The notes under the pieces were generated by a model. It was not told the DNA's origin and ran no database searches. It saw only the letters and a list, made by a program, of their open reading frames with translations. Made by a program: the position numbers and the translations under genes. 9,698 nucleotides of DNA from Candidatus Babeliales bacterium (GTDB taxonomy: Bacteria > Babelota > Babeliae > Babelales > Vermiphilaceae): positions 1 to 9,698 of the forward strand of contig JAGVMI010000126.1 of the NCBI GenBank assembly GCA_020053845.1. The letters run 5' to 3'. This document shows positions 2,639 to 9,614 of the stretch, in pieces (positions within the stretch are counted from its first letter, which is position 1; every line of letters starts with the position of its first letter).

Positions 2639-3561
2639 ACACACACATGCTCCTTTCCGACATTATTAAGAATTTGAGTACGCGCATTGCCGATTCTGGC
2701 ATAGAGCCGCATATAAGCGAATCTTACGCATGGTGGCTTTTAGAAAAAGCAACAGGGCTAAACCGCGCACAATTGCTTGCACGCGACACCCTTGAATACA
2801 CTGCGCACATCAAAGATACGCTCGATACAATGGTGCGTGATCTCACGCACCAGAATAAGCCGCTGGCTTATATATTGGGAACCGTGCCATTTGGCGATCT
2901 CACCCTGCATGTGCAGCCGCCAACACTCATTCCAAGGCATGAAACTGAAGAATGGGTACTACACCTTGCGAAAAAACTTCAGCAGACTGCTGCACATGAG
3001 AAGCTTGCTATCCTTGATCTGTGCACTGGATCTGGATGCATTGCTTTAACGCTTGCAGCACATCTTCCCCATGCTCATGTATGGGCAGTGGATATTGCAC
3101 CAGAAGCGCTTGAGCTCGCGCAAAAAAATGCTGCGCTCAATGGAATACATAACATTACACTACTCAATTCAGATCTTTTTAGCGCTCTCGCTCCTGATAT
3201 GCGTTTTGACCTCATTGTTGCCAATCCTCCGTACATTAGCCACAACGTGTGGGAGACGCTTGATACATCTGTGACGCAGTGGGAAGATTATCGCGCCCTT
3301 GTTGCCACTAAAGAGGGAGCTGCTATACTGGGGGCAATCATTAAAGAGGCACCTTCGTGGCTGCGCTCAAATGAGAAGCTCAAACAAGCGGGCATTTCGC
3401 ATCTCATGCTTGAAATAGGCTATGATCAGGGTGATACTATTTGTGCATTGTTTGAGCGCGAGGGGTATGAAGGAGTACGCGTGTTGCAAGATGCGCATGG
3501 CAAGGATCGTGTAGTAACAGGAAGCAAGCCATATGTGGCCATTCAATCGGTGGAGCAATAA
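2635..3561 (+). CDS. prmC: Peptide chain release factor glutamine methyltransferase PrmC (HemK)
   Basis: PrmC uses S-adenosylmethionine to methylate the glutamine of the GGQ loop in release factors RF1 and RF2, improving termination. The 308-residue protein has the usual two parts: a helical N-terminal domain (1-75) that grips the release factor, containing KPLAYILG (75-82) and LIPRHETE (98-105), and a Rossmann methyltransferase domain. SAM-binding motif I is LDLCTGSGCIALTLA (127-141), the acidic residue after strand 2 is D153, and the amide-methylating signature NPPY lies at 197-200. Length is slightly above the 280 or so typical of the family. The start at 2635 is supported by the ATGA overlap with ftsY, which implies coupled translation; the only nearby alternative is an ATG at 2647. 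The usual neighbour prfA is absent here. Confidence 0.97.
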   Translation: MNTHMLLSDIIKNLSTRIADSGIEPHISESYAWWLLEKATGLNRAQLLARDTLEYTAHIKDTLDTMVRDLTHQNKPLAYILGTVPFGDLTLHVQPPTLIPRHETEEWVLHLAKKLQQTAAHEKLAILDLCTGSGCIALTLAAHLPHAHVWAVDIAPEALELAQKNAALNGIHNITLLNSDLFSALAPDMRFDLIVANPPYISHNVWETLDTSVTQWEDYRALVATKEGAAILGAIIKEAPSWLRSNEKLKQAGISHLMLEIGYDQGDTICALFEREGYEGVRVLQDAHGKDRVVTGSKPYVAIQSVEQ

Positions 3562-4249
3562 ACTTATTACTATGACCGTCACACCCGGACAAATCGGATG
3601 TGCACTGCTCTCTCAAAGTTCGCGCATTGCGCCCTTTGCTCTCGCCGCCTACAGCCATATTCATCACACTGATCAAGAATACAATGAGCTTGCGCTCTTC
3701 AATCCAACGTCGCTTGCGCGCTCCATTGGCGCATTCCTTGATCACTACCGCTTGCGCAGATCATTCGCTTCTATTGCACTCTCAGGCCCCAACATTAAAG
3801 AAGAAATTGTTATCACTTCATCTGCACATCCAGATCCTCAAGAACTCCATCAGCCAGGGATTGCACACCGTGTGGTACAGGTAAAATATCTGTATCCGCA
3901 TGAGGGTAATCAACATGCATGGTATGTGTGCAGCATTGATCGGCCTACGCTTTTGCAATATGAGCTACTTGCACATATGGCACAGCTTAATCTCGTACGC
4001 ATCACCACATTAGGGCTCGCGCAACTACAATTATACCGCCACATGTATGGTGCAGCATTCAGACCAGCTCAATTGGGTATTCAACTTGCACGCGCGCACA
4101 ACAACATTGAGCATCTTTTCACTCCTGAAAGTATTCGTCGCGCACTGTATGTACCTCTAGAATTCCATGAAGCAAAGCAATATCCTCAGCACCTTCTGGG
4201 TTCTTGTGGGCTTTTTGTTTCAGAGGAAGGATATGGCATTCATCACTAA
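3533..4249 (+). CDS. PilM-like protein, short and divergent
   Basis: The protein has 238 residues and no membrane segment. The start at 3533 overlaps prmC by 29 bases but is favoured because AGGAAG (3519-3524) lies 8 bases upstream; the alternative ATG at 3572 has no ribosome site. The opening MWPFNRWSNK resembles the short amphipathic start of PilM proteins. The next part can be read as the first lobe of an actin-like fold: IGCALLSQSS as a first strand and turn, SIALSGPNIKEEIV (about 77-90), and a segment like PilM, RPTLLQYELLAHMAQLNLVRITTLGLAQLQLYR. PilM is a cytosolic ATPase that binds the N-terminus of PilN in type IV pilus machines. This one is about 100 residues shorter than usual and I see no clear phosphate loops, so ATP binding is doubtful. 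The PilN-like gene downstream is the main support. Confidence 0.55.
   Translation: MWPFNRWSNKLITMTVTPGQIGCALLSQSSRIAPFALAAYSHIHHTDQEYNELALFNPTSLARSIGAFLDHYRLRRSFASIALSGPNIKEEIVITSSAHPDPQELHQPGIAHRVVQVKYLYPHEGNQHAWYVCSIDRPTLLQYELLAHMAQLNLVRITTLGLAQLQLYRHMYGAAFRPAQLGIQLARAHNNIEHLFTPESIRRALYVPLEFHEAKQYPQHLLGSCGLFVSEEGYGIHH
4223..4230 (+). promoter_or_regulatory. Ribosome binding site that fixes the pilN-like start
   Basis: GAGGAAGG lies just upstream of the ATG at 4233, with AGGA 5 bases before it. A longer frame beginning at the ATG at 4167 has no such site and would overlap the upstream gene by 83 bases, so the later start is preferred. Confidence 0.75.
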
Positions 4250-4778
4250 CTTTACCAATGCAGTCTCACCCGTTGTACAGCGTAATTTCTTCAGATGGGT
4301 ACTATTTTCAACGCTCGCACTGCTCATCACGATAAGTGCACTTATCACCGCTACCTATTTTCAAGTTAAAACACTCAAGCGCATACGGCGCGAAGAGCAA
4401 CAGCTCGCGCTCAAAACAAACACATGCCAAACGATGCTTGATAAAAAAACCAATCTTGAAAAAACAGTCTGTTCACTTAAAAAACAGCAAGACACCATAC
4501 AAAAGCGAATAGCATCTCCTAAAAACCCCCTCGATCATTTGCAAGCACTCATTGCTGCATGCTCTGAAGATATCACTATCGACACCATAGAACTGCAAAA
4601 AAAGCAGGTATGCATGATAGCGCACGCCCCTTCCATGGCTGATGCTACTCAAATAGTGGAACGCCTTAAGGCATCCAATCTTTTTAGCAACATCGCTATC
4701 ACTACCATTCGCCAAGACACCAAAAGCGAGGAGCCTTCGTACTCTTTTACCATCAAAGGCTCGCGCATCCTCTCATGA
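4233..4778 (+). CDS. PilN-like inner-membrane protein of a type IV pilus or related system
   Basis: From the ATG at 4233 the product is 181 residues. The layout is that of PilN: a short cytosolic N-terminus (1-21), one membrane helix (about 22-43, WVLFSTLALLITISALITA), a charged coiled coil (44-94, TLKRIRREEQQLALKT onward), then a compact periplasmic domain (100-180) of alternating strands and helices ending in YSFTIKGSRIL, like the ferredoxin-like fold of PilN/PilO. PilN joins PilM in the cytosol to PilO in the periplasm. It overlaps the PilM-like gene by 17 bases. No pilO, pilP or pilQ follows; mutL is next. Either those genes lie elsewhere or the pair serves a reduced system such as DNA uptake. 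A GspL/GspM-type secretion protein or unrelated single-pass protein is possible. Confidence 0.6.
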   Translation: MAFITNFTNAVSPVVQRNFFRWVLFSTLALLITISALITATYFQVKTLKRIRREEQQLALKTNTCQTMLDKKTNLEKTVCSLKKQQDTIQKRIASPKNPLDHLQALIAACSEDITIDTIELQKKQVCMIAHAPSMADATQIVERLKASNLFSNIAITTIRQDTKSEEPSYSFTIKGSRILS

Positions 4779-6713: not shown

Positions 6714-7415
6714 TTATGCGGTGTAAGGCGCCTGCGTGTTTTTTGCAAGCATTGCACGGTAAAAATACGCTGTTGCTAAAGAACTGATTGCGTATGCTAT
6801 TGCTTTCAGAGGCAGTGACTGCAACATTTCTATGCCTACACCAATATACAAAAGCGCTGCCATTTCCCAGAAATATCCTGAGGTTAAACGCCAGCTTTGC
6901 ACAATCGCGCTGATAGGATTAATGCGCTGATCAACGATTACCCATGGCGTAAGAGCGAAACGTACGGTCAAGAACAATCCCGGCACTAAAAAGGCTGCAA
7001 ACCCCATTGCTAATAGCGGTGCAACAAGCATGAATCCGGCAAAAAGCATCAGCGCACTCAAGGGAGCAGCAAATAATCTACCCACGTTGCTTGTTCCGGT
7101 ACGACACACATCGAGTGCAATACGTATACATCCTGCTAGGGTGTACAGAAAATAAAACAGCATCATGAGGCCATACAATACGATTAGGCCGCGTGGAACG
7201 TTTTGCAATACAAGACGTGCAGCTTCTAGTGAAAGTCCCGATGCCAAAGGCACACGGTATACCTGGCTTGCGACTAGTGCTCCTGCAAATAAAATAAAAA
7301 ATCCGCCCAGCGCACAAATAAAGGTGAGGCATAAAAGGCGAATATGCGCACAAAATGCGCGAAAGCCAAATGTATAGGCATCAAAAAGTACTGAGCGTGG
7401 TACCGGTGTTTCCAT
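6714..7415 (-). CDS. Polytopic inner-membrane protein, YciC / GPDP membrane-domain-like
   Basis: The 233-residue protein has about six membrane helices (roughly 27-50, 76-101, 115-137, 138-160, 184-200, 201-223). Between helices 4 and 5 it carries FLVPGLFLTVRFALTPWVIV (142-161) and then NPISAIVQSWRLTSGYFW (166-183). This matches the pattern PG.(x)n.R....P....D....P..A...S..LT.G.FW shared by YciC/DUF975-like proteins and the membrane domain fused to some glycerophosphodiester phosphodiesterases. No catalytic domain is attached. The family's function is not established; envelope homeostasis or lipid handling has been suggested for relatives. AAGGA 6 bases before the ATG at 7415 supports the start. 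It follows mscS by 26 bases on the same strand, so it probably ends that transcript. Confidence 0.8.
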   Translation of the reverse strand: METPVPRSVLFDAYTFGFRAFCAHIRLLCLTFICALGGFFILFAGALVASQVYRVPLASGLSLEAARLVLQNVPRGLIVLYGLMMLFYFLYTLAGCIRIALDVCRTGTSNVGRLFAAPLSALMLFAGFMLVAPLLAMGFAAFLVPGLFLTVRFALTPWVIVDQRINPISAIVQSWRLTSGYFWEMAALLYIGVGIEMLQSLPLKAIAYAISSLATAYFYRAMLAKNTQAPYTA

Positions 7416-7441
7416 GAGTGTTCCTTACATCACCATATGTG

Positions 7442-8230
7442 TTACGACAATTTTTTTACTGCAAGCTCTATAGAGGCTGAATCGCAGCGCCCTTTTGCTT
7501 CTTTGATAAATGCATCAAGTACATCATCAAGATCTTGAGGCTTCACCCAACACAATACTTTCATTACCATAAAGCGCCGCTGAGTAGGAAGATCAATAAT
7601 AATGCCATGCTCAAGAATTCTAGGTTTCGGATCGCGCTCTATGCAATCAATAGTACGCAAGCTTGCCATCAAGATGCTTTTGATTTGTGCTTCATTGACC
7701 TGTACTGGCACGCTCGCTTCTAACTCCAACTGGTGTGTGCCATAGTAGGTGATATTCATCACACGCCCGCGCACAAATGATTCATTAGGTACACGCACTA
7801 AAAGACCATCTGTGGTGCGCAGTACCACTGCAAGCACTCCTACCGATTCTACTATTCCGGTAACGCCATCGCATGATACTAAATCACCTATAGCAAATGA
7901 GCGCTCACATACAATGAAAATGCCTGAAATAATATTAGCTATCGTTGTTTGGGCGGCAAAACCTATTGCAATGCCAGCAATGCCAGCAGCTCCCATAAAT
8001 GCAGAAATATTAATGCCCATTTGCGAGAGTGCGCACACACCCACTATAAGCAATCCGACATAGAGAACTACCGTGCGTACCAGCAAAAGCACTTGGGGAT
8101 TTACGCGATCAGCAAATAATCGTGCTACATAACGCGTAAGAACTACAACAATAGCTGCACCAACAACTGCAGTAATTAAAGCCTGAGTAAAAGGTACAAT
8201 CCGATGTATATAGTGATGAAGCACGTCCAT
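7442..8230 (-). CDS. mscS: Small-conductance mechanosensitive channel (MscS family)
   Basis: MscS is a heptameric inner-membrane channel that opens under tension to release solutes during hypo-osmotic shock. The product is 262 residues from the preferred ATG at 8230. Two helices (about 13-35 and 48-70) precede the pore-lining helix with its Gly/Ala packing, GAAGIAGIAIGFAAQTTIAN (80-99), then the kinked ISGIFIV segment. The beta domain follows with GIVESVGVLAVVLRTTDG and VRVPNESF, the most conserved MscS signature, and an alpha/beta C-terminal cage. Overall length is close to E. coli MscS (286). A second ATG two codons upstream (8236) directly abuts the Shine-Dalgarno and is unlikely to be used. 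The gene sits between two other membrane protein genes in a compact minus-strand operon. Confidence 0.97.
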   Translation of the reverse strand: MDVLHHYIHRIVPFTQALITAVVGAAIVVVLTRYVARLFADRVNPQVLLLVRTVVLYVGLLIVGVCALSQMGINISAFMGAAGIAGIAIGFAAQTTIANIISGIFIVCERSFAIGDLVSCDGVTGIVESVGVLAVVLRTTDGLLVRVPNESFVRGRVMNITYYGTHQLELEASVPVQVNEAQIKSILMASLRTIDCIERDPKPRILEHGIIIDLPTQRRFMVMKVLCWVKPQDLDDVLDAFIKEAKGRCDSASIELAVKKLS

Positions 8231-8236
8231 AAGCAT

Positions 8237-8240
8237 TCCT
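8237..8240 (-). promoter_or_regulatory. Ribosome binding site that decides the mscS start
   Basis: On the minus strand AAAAGGA is followed directly by ATGCTTATG. The first ATG (8236) has zero spacing from AGGA, too close to be used; the second (8230) has 6 bases. The site overlaps the end of the upstream 68-residue gene, consistent with coupled translation. Confidence 0.65.
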
Positions 8241-8241
8241 T

Positions 8242-8448
8242 TTAGCGTCGTGGATGGTAAGCCCAGCCGTCGCTATAAAAACGAAACATACGTGAAGAAT
8301 AACCAAGTGTGCGCAAGCCTACATGGATAAGCATGAGCCCAAAGAAAGCTCCTACGATGCGCATAACCAATGCTCCTGCAAAAAGGCAGAAGATCATTGC
8401 ACCTGCTATCATCGCTCCCGTTCCTACAAAAAATTGGCGGTATATCAT
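8242..8448 (-). CDS. Small membrane protein, unknown function
   Basis: This 68-residue frame has a strong ribosome site, AAAGGAG 7 bases before the ATG at 8448, which makes it likely to be real. Residues 7 to 29 (FVGTGAMIAGAMIFCLFAGALVM) and 31 to 46 (VGAFFGLMLIHVGLRT) are hydrophobic and glycine-rich, suggesting a two-helix hairpin. The C-terminus RMFRFYSDGWAYHPRR is basic and aromatic and probably cytosolic. I do not recognise a family. Its stop lies 5 bases before the mscS ribosome site and ATG cluster, so the two are almost certainly co-translated. It might be a partner of the channel or simply a co-transcribed envelope protein. Confidence 0.75.
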   Translation of the reverse strand: MIYRQFFVGTGAMIAGAMIFCLFAGALVMRIVGAFFGLMLIHVGLRTLGYSSRMFRFYSDGWAYHPRR

Positions 8449-8627
8449 GAAGTCACTCCTTTACTTTGAGCAGATGATGCGTAACGCATATCTGACGACA
8501 TCATAGTTAGTTGCATAAGTTTATTTTTAAAACGCTTTATTACTTCAACTGAAGCATCTTCACAGGCCTTGCGCTTTCTATCTACTTCACTTGGAGCGTT
8601 GAATACAACTTTACTCGTATCATTACC
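8445..8627 (-). other. Orphan open frame of 60 codons, possible frameshifted C-terminus or small gene
   Basis: Between the cysteine protein and the 68-residue membrane gene, the minus strand holds 60 codons with no stop, ending in a TGA at 8447-8445 that overlaps the next ATG as ATGA. The encoded sequence is charged and protein-like, including SEVDRKRKACEDASVEVIKR, and codons follow an RNY-like pattern. There is no ATG, GTG or TTG start until an ATG at 8516 (23 residues left, no ribosome site). The upstream gene stops at 8623-8625, and a +1 shift at its last codon (AGG TAA to AAT) would join the two into about 243 residues. The frame could be a frameshift-disrupted C-terminus, a programmed shift, or chance. 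The upstream gene ends in tandem stops (TAATGA), which argues against efficient programmed read-through. Confidence 0.35.
8477..8489. repeat. 13-base perfect palindrome upstream of the small membrane gene
   Basis: ATGCGT-A-ACGCAT forms 6-base arms around one base, 29 bases upstream of the ATG at 8448. It lies within the orphan open frame, so it may be coding coincidence. As DNA it has the shape of a dimeric regulator site. No convincing promoter hexamers flank it. Confidence 0.4.
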
Positions 8628-9177
8628 TTACACTTAAAAGCTGCCCATCCAATACTACGCTTCGAGCATCGTAGTAGCTTAAGGAAGCGAGCGTGGTACG
8701 TTCTTTTAATGCAGCAACTCGCTCAGCTCGTGTCTTGCACGCTTTGATAATACTTTCAAATTCAGTACTCACATATGCACGCCCATTCCAACGCTTTTTC
8801 TCATACTCCTCTTTGGCTTGTTGATATGCGGGCTCATCGCATTGAGGACACCAAGAACCTTTAAAAACCTGTTGCCTTTGCTCGATTTGCATCATTCTTT
8901 GCAAAGGAAACTCTTCACACGTTGGGCAAAAAACGGTTCTGCGGGCCGGCTGGCGATTTGACATCGCAAGAGGCACTAAAGGAACATCCTCTATCCTATT
9001 ACTGAGTCGAAGTTTGGATAATTTCTCAGATAGCAGGTCTATCGTATTTTCGTCCCATTCTTTGGCAACGCACTGAGCATTATCCATACCAACCAACTGA
9101 AAGCTCATCACTACGCTCGCTATAATACACCAATTGATGCGCACAGTTACCCCGAGCGTGATTTTTTTAAAGAACAT
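8623..9177 (-). CDS. Exported cysteine-rich protein with two CxxC knuckles (paralogue A)
   Basis: The frame encodes 184 residues from the ATG at 9177, or 173 from a GTG at 9144. The GTG follows the upstream stop by 2 bases and is preceded by CGGGG; the ATG has only AAGAAG abutting it, so the start is unsettled. Either start gives a hydrophobic export segment (INWCIIASVVMSFQLVG, 14-30). The mature part has AKEWD (38-42) followed by a helix, then CPTC (84-87), 22 residues and GSWCPQCDE (107-115), a likely four-cysteine metal or disulfide site. A lysine- and glutamate-rich helical tail follows. The neighbouring upstream gene has the same CPTC...GSWCxxCD core, so the two are diverged duplicates. 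I recognise no named family. Secretion to the periplasm is inferred from the N-terminus. The tail may be longer if the downstream open frame belongs to it. Confidence 0.8.
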   Translation of the reverse strand: MFFKKITLGVTVRINWCIIASVVMSFQLVGMDNAQCVAKEWDENTIDLLSEKLSKLRLSNRIEDVPLVPLAMSNRQPARRTVFCPTCEEFPLQRMMQIEQRQQVFKGSWCPQCDEPAYQQAKEEYEKKRWNGRAYVSTEFESIIKACKTRAERVAALKERTTLASLSYYDARSVVLDGQLLSVR

Positions 9178-9614
9178 TCTTCTTGTTGCTTCAGAGCCGA
9201 CTTACTCGATGCCTCATATCCTCTTTTGAGCATCGCAATACGCAAATCCGCTCGCTCTTTTTTCAGCCTCTTTTCGCGCAACCCAATCTTAGCAAGCTTT
9301 TTAGACATTCGATCCATCACGCGCGCATCCCACTCCTTGGCATCACACACAACGCACCACGATCCATAGAGTTCTTTGAAACCTTCTGAACGTACCAATT
9401 CATGCGCTCCGCGGCCCTCAGTAATACAGGTTGGGCATAGGATACGATCGGCAGGCGGAGTATGTCGCACTCCAAATTGAGCATTTTGCTCCACAAATTG
9501 CACCACTTCAGGCGACACAACATATTCAGGTGTTTCATGTGTAGCGGCAGCAGAGAGTGTTGCAGAAAAAATTACCTGGACACATGCGATAATAAACGAG
9601 CTTGCTCTGATCAT
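9147..9614 (-). CDS. Exported cysteine-rich protein with two CxxC knuckles (paralogue B)
   Basis: From the ATG at 9614 the product is 155 residues; a GTG at 9623 would add three but has no better ribosome site. A classic signal peptide is visible: MIRASS, a hydrophobic core FIIACVQVIFSATL, and a probable signal peptidase I site after SAAA (21-24). The mature protein has CPTC (60-63), 23 residues and GSWCVVCD (84-91), then AKEWD (92-96) and a helix with the pattern VMDRMSKKLAKIGLR (99-113). The tail is strongly basic (KRLKKE, LKKSRSG). Four cysteines in two CxxC pairs suggest a zinc ribbon or, in the periplasm, disulfides. No catalytic motif of thioredoxin type (CxxC in a TRX fold) can be recognised. 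Function is unknown. It is the first gene of the minus-strand cluster. Confidence 0.8.
   Translation of the reverse strand: MIRASSFIIACVQVIFSATLSAAATHETPEYVVSPEVVQFVEQNAQFGVRHTPPADRILCPTCITEGRGAHELVRSEGFKELYGSWCVVCDAKEWDARVMDRMSKKLAKIGLREKRLKKERADLRIAMLKRGYEASSKSALKQQEECSLKKSRSG

What the first reader, a model, noticed from the sequence alone, without database searches (positions are those of the whole stretch)
8623..9614. Tandem exported paralogues built from a re-used CPTC / GSWCxxCD / AKEWD module
Both neighbouring proteins have an export signal and the core CPTC-x22-23-CxxCD with GSW before the second pair. In the upstream protein the second CxxC runs directly into AKEWD and a helix (D..S.KL.K..LR). 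In the downstream protein a matching AKEWD helix stands before the cysteine core instead, preceded by a lone C. The halves thus look permuted or partly duplicated, not merely copied. AKEWD is encoded by different synonymous codons in each, so the duplication is not recent. I recognise no described family, so this may be a new secreted cysteine-knuckle family.
Basis: partly seen in the sequence, partly recalled or inferred. Interest (0 to 1): 0.7.

Follow-up and report, generated by a model that had tools for sequence, protein, structure and literature searches.

The report
Exported cysteine-protein twins with swapped modules
Two neighbouring genes of a small-genome bacterium, likely an intracellular parasite, encode small proteins that are probably exported and that share the same two building blocks in opposite order; they match no protein family in the libraries searched, and they would act on the host or in the cell envelope.

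Summary
P1 (9614-9147, -) reads core then AKEWD helix; P2 (9144-8623, -) reads AKEWD helix then core. Both similarities exceed shuffles (helix: 0 of 5000 in 4 of 4 pairings; core: 0 to 1 of 5000); flanks in like position show none. Full-length BLASTP gives the two matches in inverted order. A relative on one 33-kb contig keeps both proteins (79% and 84-85% identical) and the swapped order. P2's real C-terminus is longer: its frame breaks near 8627, and 59 of 60 further residues of the relative lie in another frame, ending in an ATGA overlap with the next gene. No library scanned recognises the pair, and no convincing relative appears in the 100 other genomes of the phylum held. They precede, in an apparent operon, a small membrane protein, an MscS channel and a YciC-like protein; three relatives keep a similar trio with something else ahead of it. 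Reading: a very narrow, module-shuffled pair of likely exported orphan proteins, probably zinc-ribbon-like, from a presumed Dependentiae bacterium. Export, fold, zinc and function are untested.

The parts
9147..9614 (-). P1: 155-aa protein, likely exported; order = N-terminal region, four-cysteine core, AKEWD helix, basic tail
   Evidence: ORF; relative P0004 of the same length, 122 of 155 residues identical
9543..9614 (-). P1 hydrophobic N-terminus ending LSAAA, likely signal peptide (residues 1-24)
   Evidence: strongest 13-residue hydropathy peak of the protein, at residue 8; identical in the relative; no signal-peptide predictor was available
9345..9437 (-). P1 four-cysteine core CPTC-x23-CVVC (residues 60-90)
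   Evidence: all four Cys kept in the relative
9270..9341 (-). P1 AKEWD helix module, directly after the core
   Evidence: helix only by a low-confidence model
8623..9144 (-). P2: likely exported protein read from a GTG start 2 bases after the P1 stop; frame breaks near its end; order = signal, AKEWD helix, core, C-terminal region
   Evidence: relative P0002 starts at the equivalent codon
9073..9144 (-). P2 hydrophobic N-terminus, likely signal peptide (residues 1-24)
   Evidence: strongest hydropathy peak, at residue 6
8995..9066 (-). P2 AKEWD helix module, before the core
   Evidence: helix only by a low-confidence model
8839..8928 (-). P2 four-cysteine core CPTC-x22-CPQC (residues 73-102)
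   Evidence: all four Cys kept in the relative
8445..8627 (-). conserved C-terminal part of P2, in another frame than the rest of P2; 59 of 60 residues identical to the relative; its stop overlaps the next start (ATGA)
   Evidence: read on its own, not joined
8242..8448 (-). 68-aa small membrane protein, next gene of the apparent operon
7442..8236 (-). MscS-type mechanosensitive channel
   Evidence: PF00924 4.7e-20
6714..7415 (-). YciC/UPF0259-like membrane protein
   Evidence: NF002774 5.8e-6 and PF06790 0.0013, both below the curated cut-off

Best explanation
Two adjacent genes encode paralogous small proteins, each with an N-terminus that likely serves as a Sec export signal, a shared four-cysteine core that probably binds one zinc ion as a zinc-ribbon-like knuckle pair, and a shared AKEWD stretch, predicted to be helical, that follows the core in the first protein and precedes it in the second. 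Inferred history: a core-helix gene was duplicated in tandem; a stage with core-helix-core in one reading frame lost its first core, which leaves helix-core behind the second signal peptide. Inferred function: both proteins cross the inner membrane and act as a co-made pair outside the cytoplasm, in the envelope or in the host cell. There the core would be the stable scaffold and the re-used helix the common docking surface, presented from opposite sides. Shown: the two modules, their swapped order, its conservation in one relative, the tight gene packing. Not shown: export, zinc, partner, host role.
For: Module similarities in swapped order: helix 0 of 5000 shuffles in 4 of 4 pairings, core 0 to 1 of 5000, cores with cysteines fixed 0 to 2 of 5000. 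BLASTP of whole proteins gives both matches in inverted order: helix 1e-8 and core 0.001 for P0001 vs P0004; 5e-6 and 3e-5 within the window; 1e-6 and 6e-4 within the relative. The relative pair P0002/P0004 is reported with a longest contig of 33,292 bases for both, hence likely neighbours. The four core cysteines are kept in 4 of 4 proteins, while others change (C to Y before AKEWD in P2, C to S near the P1 end). The strongest hydropathy peaks lie at residues 6-8 in all four. P1 stop and P2 start are 2 bases apart and the P2 tail overlaps the next gene by ATGA. In the Dependentiae Chromulinavorax, 44% of coding sequences carry putative signal peptides and this set is enriched in ORFans (PMC6561590, passages).
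Against: No zinc-finger family reaches its cut-off (best of the two-pair kind Zn_ribbon_NOB1, E 0.28). Models have mean pLDDT 39 and 42, so the fold is unknown. Outside the cytoplasm four cysteines could instead form disulphides; VKOR is present in 23 of 101 genomes of the phylum, though not found in this 66.9% complete one, and DsbA was not searched. Only one relative contig was found, so conservation rests on two sequences per protein. The AKEWD helix has a hydrophobic moment above chance in none of the four (256, 2084, 1638 and 2404 of 5000 shuffles reach it), which weakens the docking-surface idea. DNA-level traces of the duplication are weak. The phylum name is inferred, not read from a record.
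Confidence: 0.45

Rival explanations
1. The core is a disulphide-bonded module of a periplasmic protein, not a metal site: the two CxxC pairs stabilise a small envelope protein that works with the MscS channel and small membrane protein of the same operon.
For: Both proteins are probably exported; they sit directly upstream of a small membrane protein, MscS and a YciC-like protein on one strand with overlaps or short gaps; VKOR occurs in 23 of 101 genomes of the phylum.
Against: No VKOR found in this genome (66.9% complete). In three relatives a similar trio is kept while the slot ahead holds an ankyrin protein, an unrelated 200-aa protein or only a 62-codon open frame, so the channel does not need P1/P2. 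CPxC pairs spaced like this are more usual for zinc knuckles (recalled).
Confidence: 0.25
2. Degenerate RING origin: the four cysteines are the second half of a RING finger (its fifth to eighth ligands) kept after loss of the first half, in exported proteins aimed at the host ubiquitin system.
For: A 241-aa protein with an N-terminal hydrophobic stretch and a RING-like end in genome G083 aligns with P2 from the core into the following region: 0 of 2000 (P0001) and 1 of 2000 (P0002) shuffles reach the score, 2 and 16 of 2000 with C and P fixed; BLASTP 4e-4 for the single pair with P0002. Babela is reported to have a RING finger protein and other ubiquitin-related proteins (PMC4378268, passages).
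Against: That protein was picked as a weak hit from 86 genomes (E 0.148), so the pairwise values are selected. P1 and its relative do not match it (99 and 403 of 2000; 290 and 936 with C and P fixed). No RING model is listed for any of the four proteins at E up to 10. No CxxC or CxH pair stands before the core. The profile of the cores did not list G083 at E 0.1.
Confidence: 0.12
3. The AKEWD helix resemblance is convergence or chance between two helix-forming stretches, and only the cores are related.
For: Alanine-, lysine- and leucine-rich helices resemble each other easily; the helix profile gives no convincing match elsewhere in the phylum (best E 0.00849, with a stop inside).
Against: 0 of 5000 composition shuffles in each of 4 pairings, ungapped over 19 to 24 residues; 8 columns invariant in all four.
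Confidence: 0.06

Closest known systems
Exported ORFans and host-interaction proteins of Dependentiae (Chromulinavorax, Babela; PMC6561590, PMC4378268, passages seen)
   Same: Probable signal peptides, lineage-restricted proteins without known domains; Babela is reported to have a circularly permuted Ulp1-like family and seven large secreted proteins with a cysteine-rich domain.
   Different: Here two adjacent genes share two modules in opposite order; no similarity to a described family was found. Membership of the organism in Dependentiae is inferred.
Zinc ribbon / zinc-knuckle domains (such as Zn_ribbon_NOB1, PF08772)
   Same: Two CPxC/CxxC pairs about 22 residues apart.
   Different: No profile reaches its cut-off; probably exported, whereas most zinc ribbons are cytoplasmic (recalled).
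RING finger (PF00097, PF13639)
   Same: P2 core and the stretch after it resemble the last half of a RING-like protein of genome G083 that may be exported.
   Different: Only four of eight ligands; no RING model match; P1 does not show it.

Membership tests
Zinc ribbon | two cysteine pairs CxxC ... CxxC in one small domain | tested here: met
   CP[TA]C-x22/23-CxxC in 4 of 4 proteins
Zinc ribbon | profile match above curated cut-off | tested here: not met
   PF08772 E 0.28, 11.8 bits against a cut-off of 24.9; Zn_ribbon_8 E 1.2; NCBIfam below cut-offs and PDB profile searches best E 0.14
Zinc ribbon | beta-hairpin ribbon fold around one zinc | tested here: inconclusive
   AlphaFold2 mean pLDDT 39.1 and 42.4 with two-row alignments
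Zinc ribbon | bound zinc | not testable with these tools
   needs purified protein
RING finger | eight ligands (C3HC4-type) in cross-brace order | tested here: not met
   four cysteines only, no CxH between the pairs (sequence)
RING finger | match to a RING profile | tested here: not met
   no RING model listed for any of four proteins at E up to 10
Exported lineage-restricted proteins (ORFans) | N-terminal export signal | tested here: inconclusive
   hydropathy peak at residues 6-8 in 4 of 4, small-residue cleavage context in P1; no signal-peptide predictor available
Exported lineage-restricted proteins (ORFans) | no relatives outside a narrow lineage | tested here: met
   only the window and one other contig in about 5.8 billion proteins; in the 100 other genomes of the phylum the best matches are E 0.0148 (core profile, 28 positions) and 0.00849 (helix profile, stop inside)

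The most novel reading that the evidence does not exclude
A tandem pair of exported host-directed adaptors built from a reduced, RING-derived cysteine core and a mobile AKEWD docking helix; the helix was moved from one side of the core to the other after gene duplication, so the two proteins present the same docking surface with opposite geometry to a host complex.
Probability: 0.08. Interest if true: 0.65.

Novelty: new variant of a known kind. Interest (0 to 1): 0.33.

Why it matters
Some intracellular bacteria export large sets of proteins that match nothing (for one Dependentiae member see PMC6561590, passages). This pair shows one way in which such proteins could arise: duplication followed by a swap in the order of two short modules, kept in two related genomes. 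If the swap is functional, it offers a small test case for how new exported proteins are assembled. If it is neutral, it is one more narrow orphan family.

Tried and rejected
Wider family: three searches of about 5.8 billion proteins, the last with the four-protein profile at E up to 10, gave only the window's own proteins and one other contig. Two scans of genome contigs and one of viral contigs gave none (own or very near records may be left out there). Genome searches with each protein in 86 genomes and with the core profile and the helix profile in 101 gave only weak matches outside the own genome. The 13 loci of those weak matches were translated in six frames (for ten; one search's range was off for L013, L015 and L020, which read). 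Two are pyruvate-phosphate-dikinase-like with a chance GSWCP (recognised from memory), one is the RING-like protein, and the rest look like other proteins, antisense frames or stop-interrupted frames. One search had read only one strand of these loci and is replaced. The weak helix matches (22 genomes besides the own at E up to 1) were not read one by one. The GSWCxxCD DNA pattern occurs in 7 of 101 genomes; the six single matches outside the own genome lie in open stretches of 7 to 31 codons without a CPxC partner.

Second copy of the helix after the P2 core: MAFFT aligned K.W..R there, but shuffles do not support it (402 to 1488 of 2000 reach the score). Common N-terminal helix: not supported (1278 to 1994 of 2000). 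DNA-level trace of a recent partial duplication: weak (37 and 47 of 1000 codon shuffles in two tests, 99 of 1000 in a third, softer one; in the first the best match was not the AKEWD region). Fold comparison was not run, because the models were too poor.

A tail comparison was made in the wrong frame and printed 4 of 59; one search replaces it (59 of 60).

Literature: listings of searches, passages of PMC6561590 and PMC4378268. No paper describing this pair was seen in those listings; no search by the sequence motifs themselves was made.

Full report
Setting. The window is a whole contig (C75, 9698 bases) of an 822,586-base, 148-contig, 66.9% complete genome. The phylum has 101 held genomes counted with this one; one search lists all of them, and all 100 others are of the same order, with sizes of 0.5 to 2.4 Mb. 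From the small genomes and the one-order phylum I infer Dependentiae (recalled picture of that phylum); no call names the organism.

The two proteins. P1 runs 9614-9147 and P2 starts at a GTG at 9144, both on the - strand, 2 bases apart. The relative's P2 begins MHINW where the window has GTG-RINW, which supports this start against the longer ORF from 9177. P1 has the core CPTC-x23-CVVCD followed at once by AKEWD; P2 has AKEWD after the signal and then CPTC-x22-CPQCD. Whole-protein BLASTP finds the helix and the core as two matches in inverted order. Shuffling shows that both are beyond chance: helix 0 of 5000 in each of four pairings, core 0, 0, 0 and 1 of 5000, and cores with their cysteines fixed 0, 0, 2 and 0 of 5000. 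The comparisons of like positions (after-core with after-core, before-core with before-core) are not significant.

Conservation. Only one other contig was found to carry relatives: P0004 (122 of 155 residues identical to P1) and P0002 (146 of the first 172 residues identical to P2). Both are reported with a longest contig of 33,292 bases, so they are likely neighbours too. The order of modules is the same. AKEWD differs in 3 of 4 degenerate codons between P1 and P2. The relative's DNA was not at hand, so selection on the codons could not be measured.

The broken end of P2. P0002 is longer, and the window encodes 59 of 60 of its last residues in another frame between 8627 and 8445; that stretch ends in a stop that overlaps the ATG of the next gene as ATGA. 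The window's P2 is therefore a frame-broken version of a longer protein. An intact copy exists in the relative. Whether the break is real or an assembly error cannot be told without reads.

Surroundings. Downstream on the same strand follow a 68-aa membrane protein, an MscS channel and a YciC-like protein, then a convergent gene. Thirteen of the 14 other genomes of the same family with an MscS match were opened around it (G019 was left out because its match lies at a contig end). In three, G011, G027 and G005, a small membrane protein stands before MscS: BLASTP 0.002 and 0.019 for G011 and G027, 2e-5 for G005 and 7e-15 between G005 and G027. A membrane protein follows in each, UPF0259-like below the cut-off in G027 and G005 and closer to another membrane model (GPDPase_memb, 2.3e-4, below the cut-off) in G011. 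The slot ahead of the trio holds an ankyrin protein in G027 (Ank 1.1e-5), an unrelated 200-aa protein in G005 and only a 62-codon open frame in G011. In the other ten no such small protein was recognised next to MscS. P1/P2 thus look like lineage-specific cargo ahead of a cluster that recurs in part of the family.

What it could be. Best E-values per library are 0.067 (Pfam), 0.038 (NCBIfam) and 0.05 (PHROGs), none over a curated cut-off where one exists; PADLOC lists none at 0.1; the PDB sequence searches give 0.14 and 0.73 at best. Structure prediction with two-row alignments failed (mean pLDDT 39.1 and 42.4), so no fold search was run. I favour a zinc-ribbon-like core by the conserved spacing and the retention of just these four cysteines; disulphides remain possible. 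VKOR was not found in this incomplete genome but is present in 23 of 101 of the phylum. A weak resemblance of P2, not P1, to the second half of a RING-like end of a protein in G083 is a lead only, because that protein was chosen from 86 genomes by this very resemblance.

Context in print. In Chromulinavorax 44% of coding sequences carry putative signal peptides, and that set is enriched in ORFans (PMC6561590, passages). Babela is reported to have a circularly permuted Ulp1-like family, a RING finger protein and large secreted proteins with a cysteine-rich domain (PMC4378268, passages). The present pair would fit such a repertoire, if the phylum is right.

Verdict. The sequence observation is real and cleanly supported; the family is very narrow; the mechanism is inferred. 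It is a modest but well-defined case of module rearrangement in probably exported orphan proteins.

Noticed in passing
8620-8630: The P2 reading frame is broken here; the conserved rest continues in another frame to 8445 with an ATGA overlap to the next gene.
   Followed up: yes
L011 1-723 (-), genome G083: 241-aa protein with a hydrophobic N-terminal stretch and a RING-like C-terminus (zf-C3HC4 6.5e-4, RING_XB3-XBAT31 5.9e-5, both below the curated cut-off), possibly an exported RING protein; three residues are unknown.
   Followed up: partly
6714-8448; L063, L065, L066: Small membrane protein, MscS and a further membrane protein stand together in three relatives, with a variable gene, once an ankyrin protein with a likely export signal (L065 391-885), in the slot ahead.
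   Followed up: partly
4167-4775 and 3533-4246: PilN-like protein (PF05137 3.6e-7) preceded by an unrecognised 238-aa protein, possibly a PilM-like partner (guess from position), between genes that look like a protein methyltransferase and MutL (names recalled).
   Followed up: no
L062 805-1215 (on the reverse-complemented locus): VKOR-like gene in relative G009, so disulphide formation outside the cytoplasm is likely in part of the phylum (23 of 101 genomes).
   Followed up: yes
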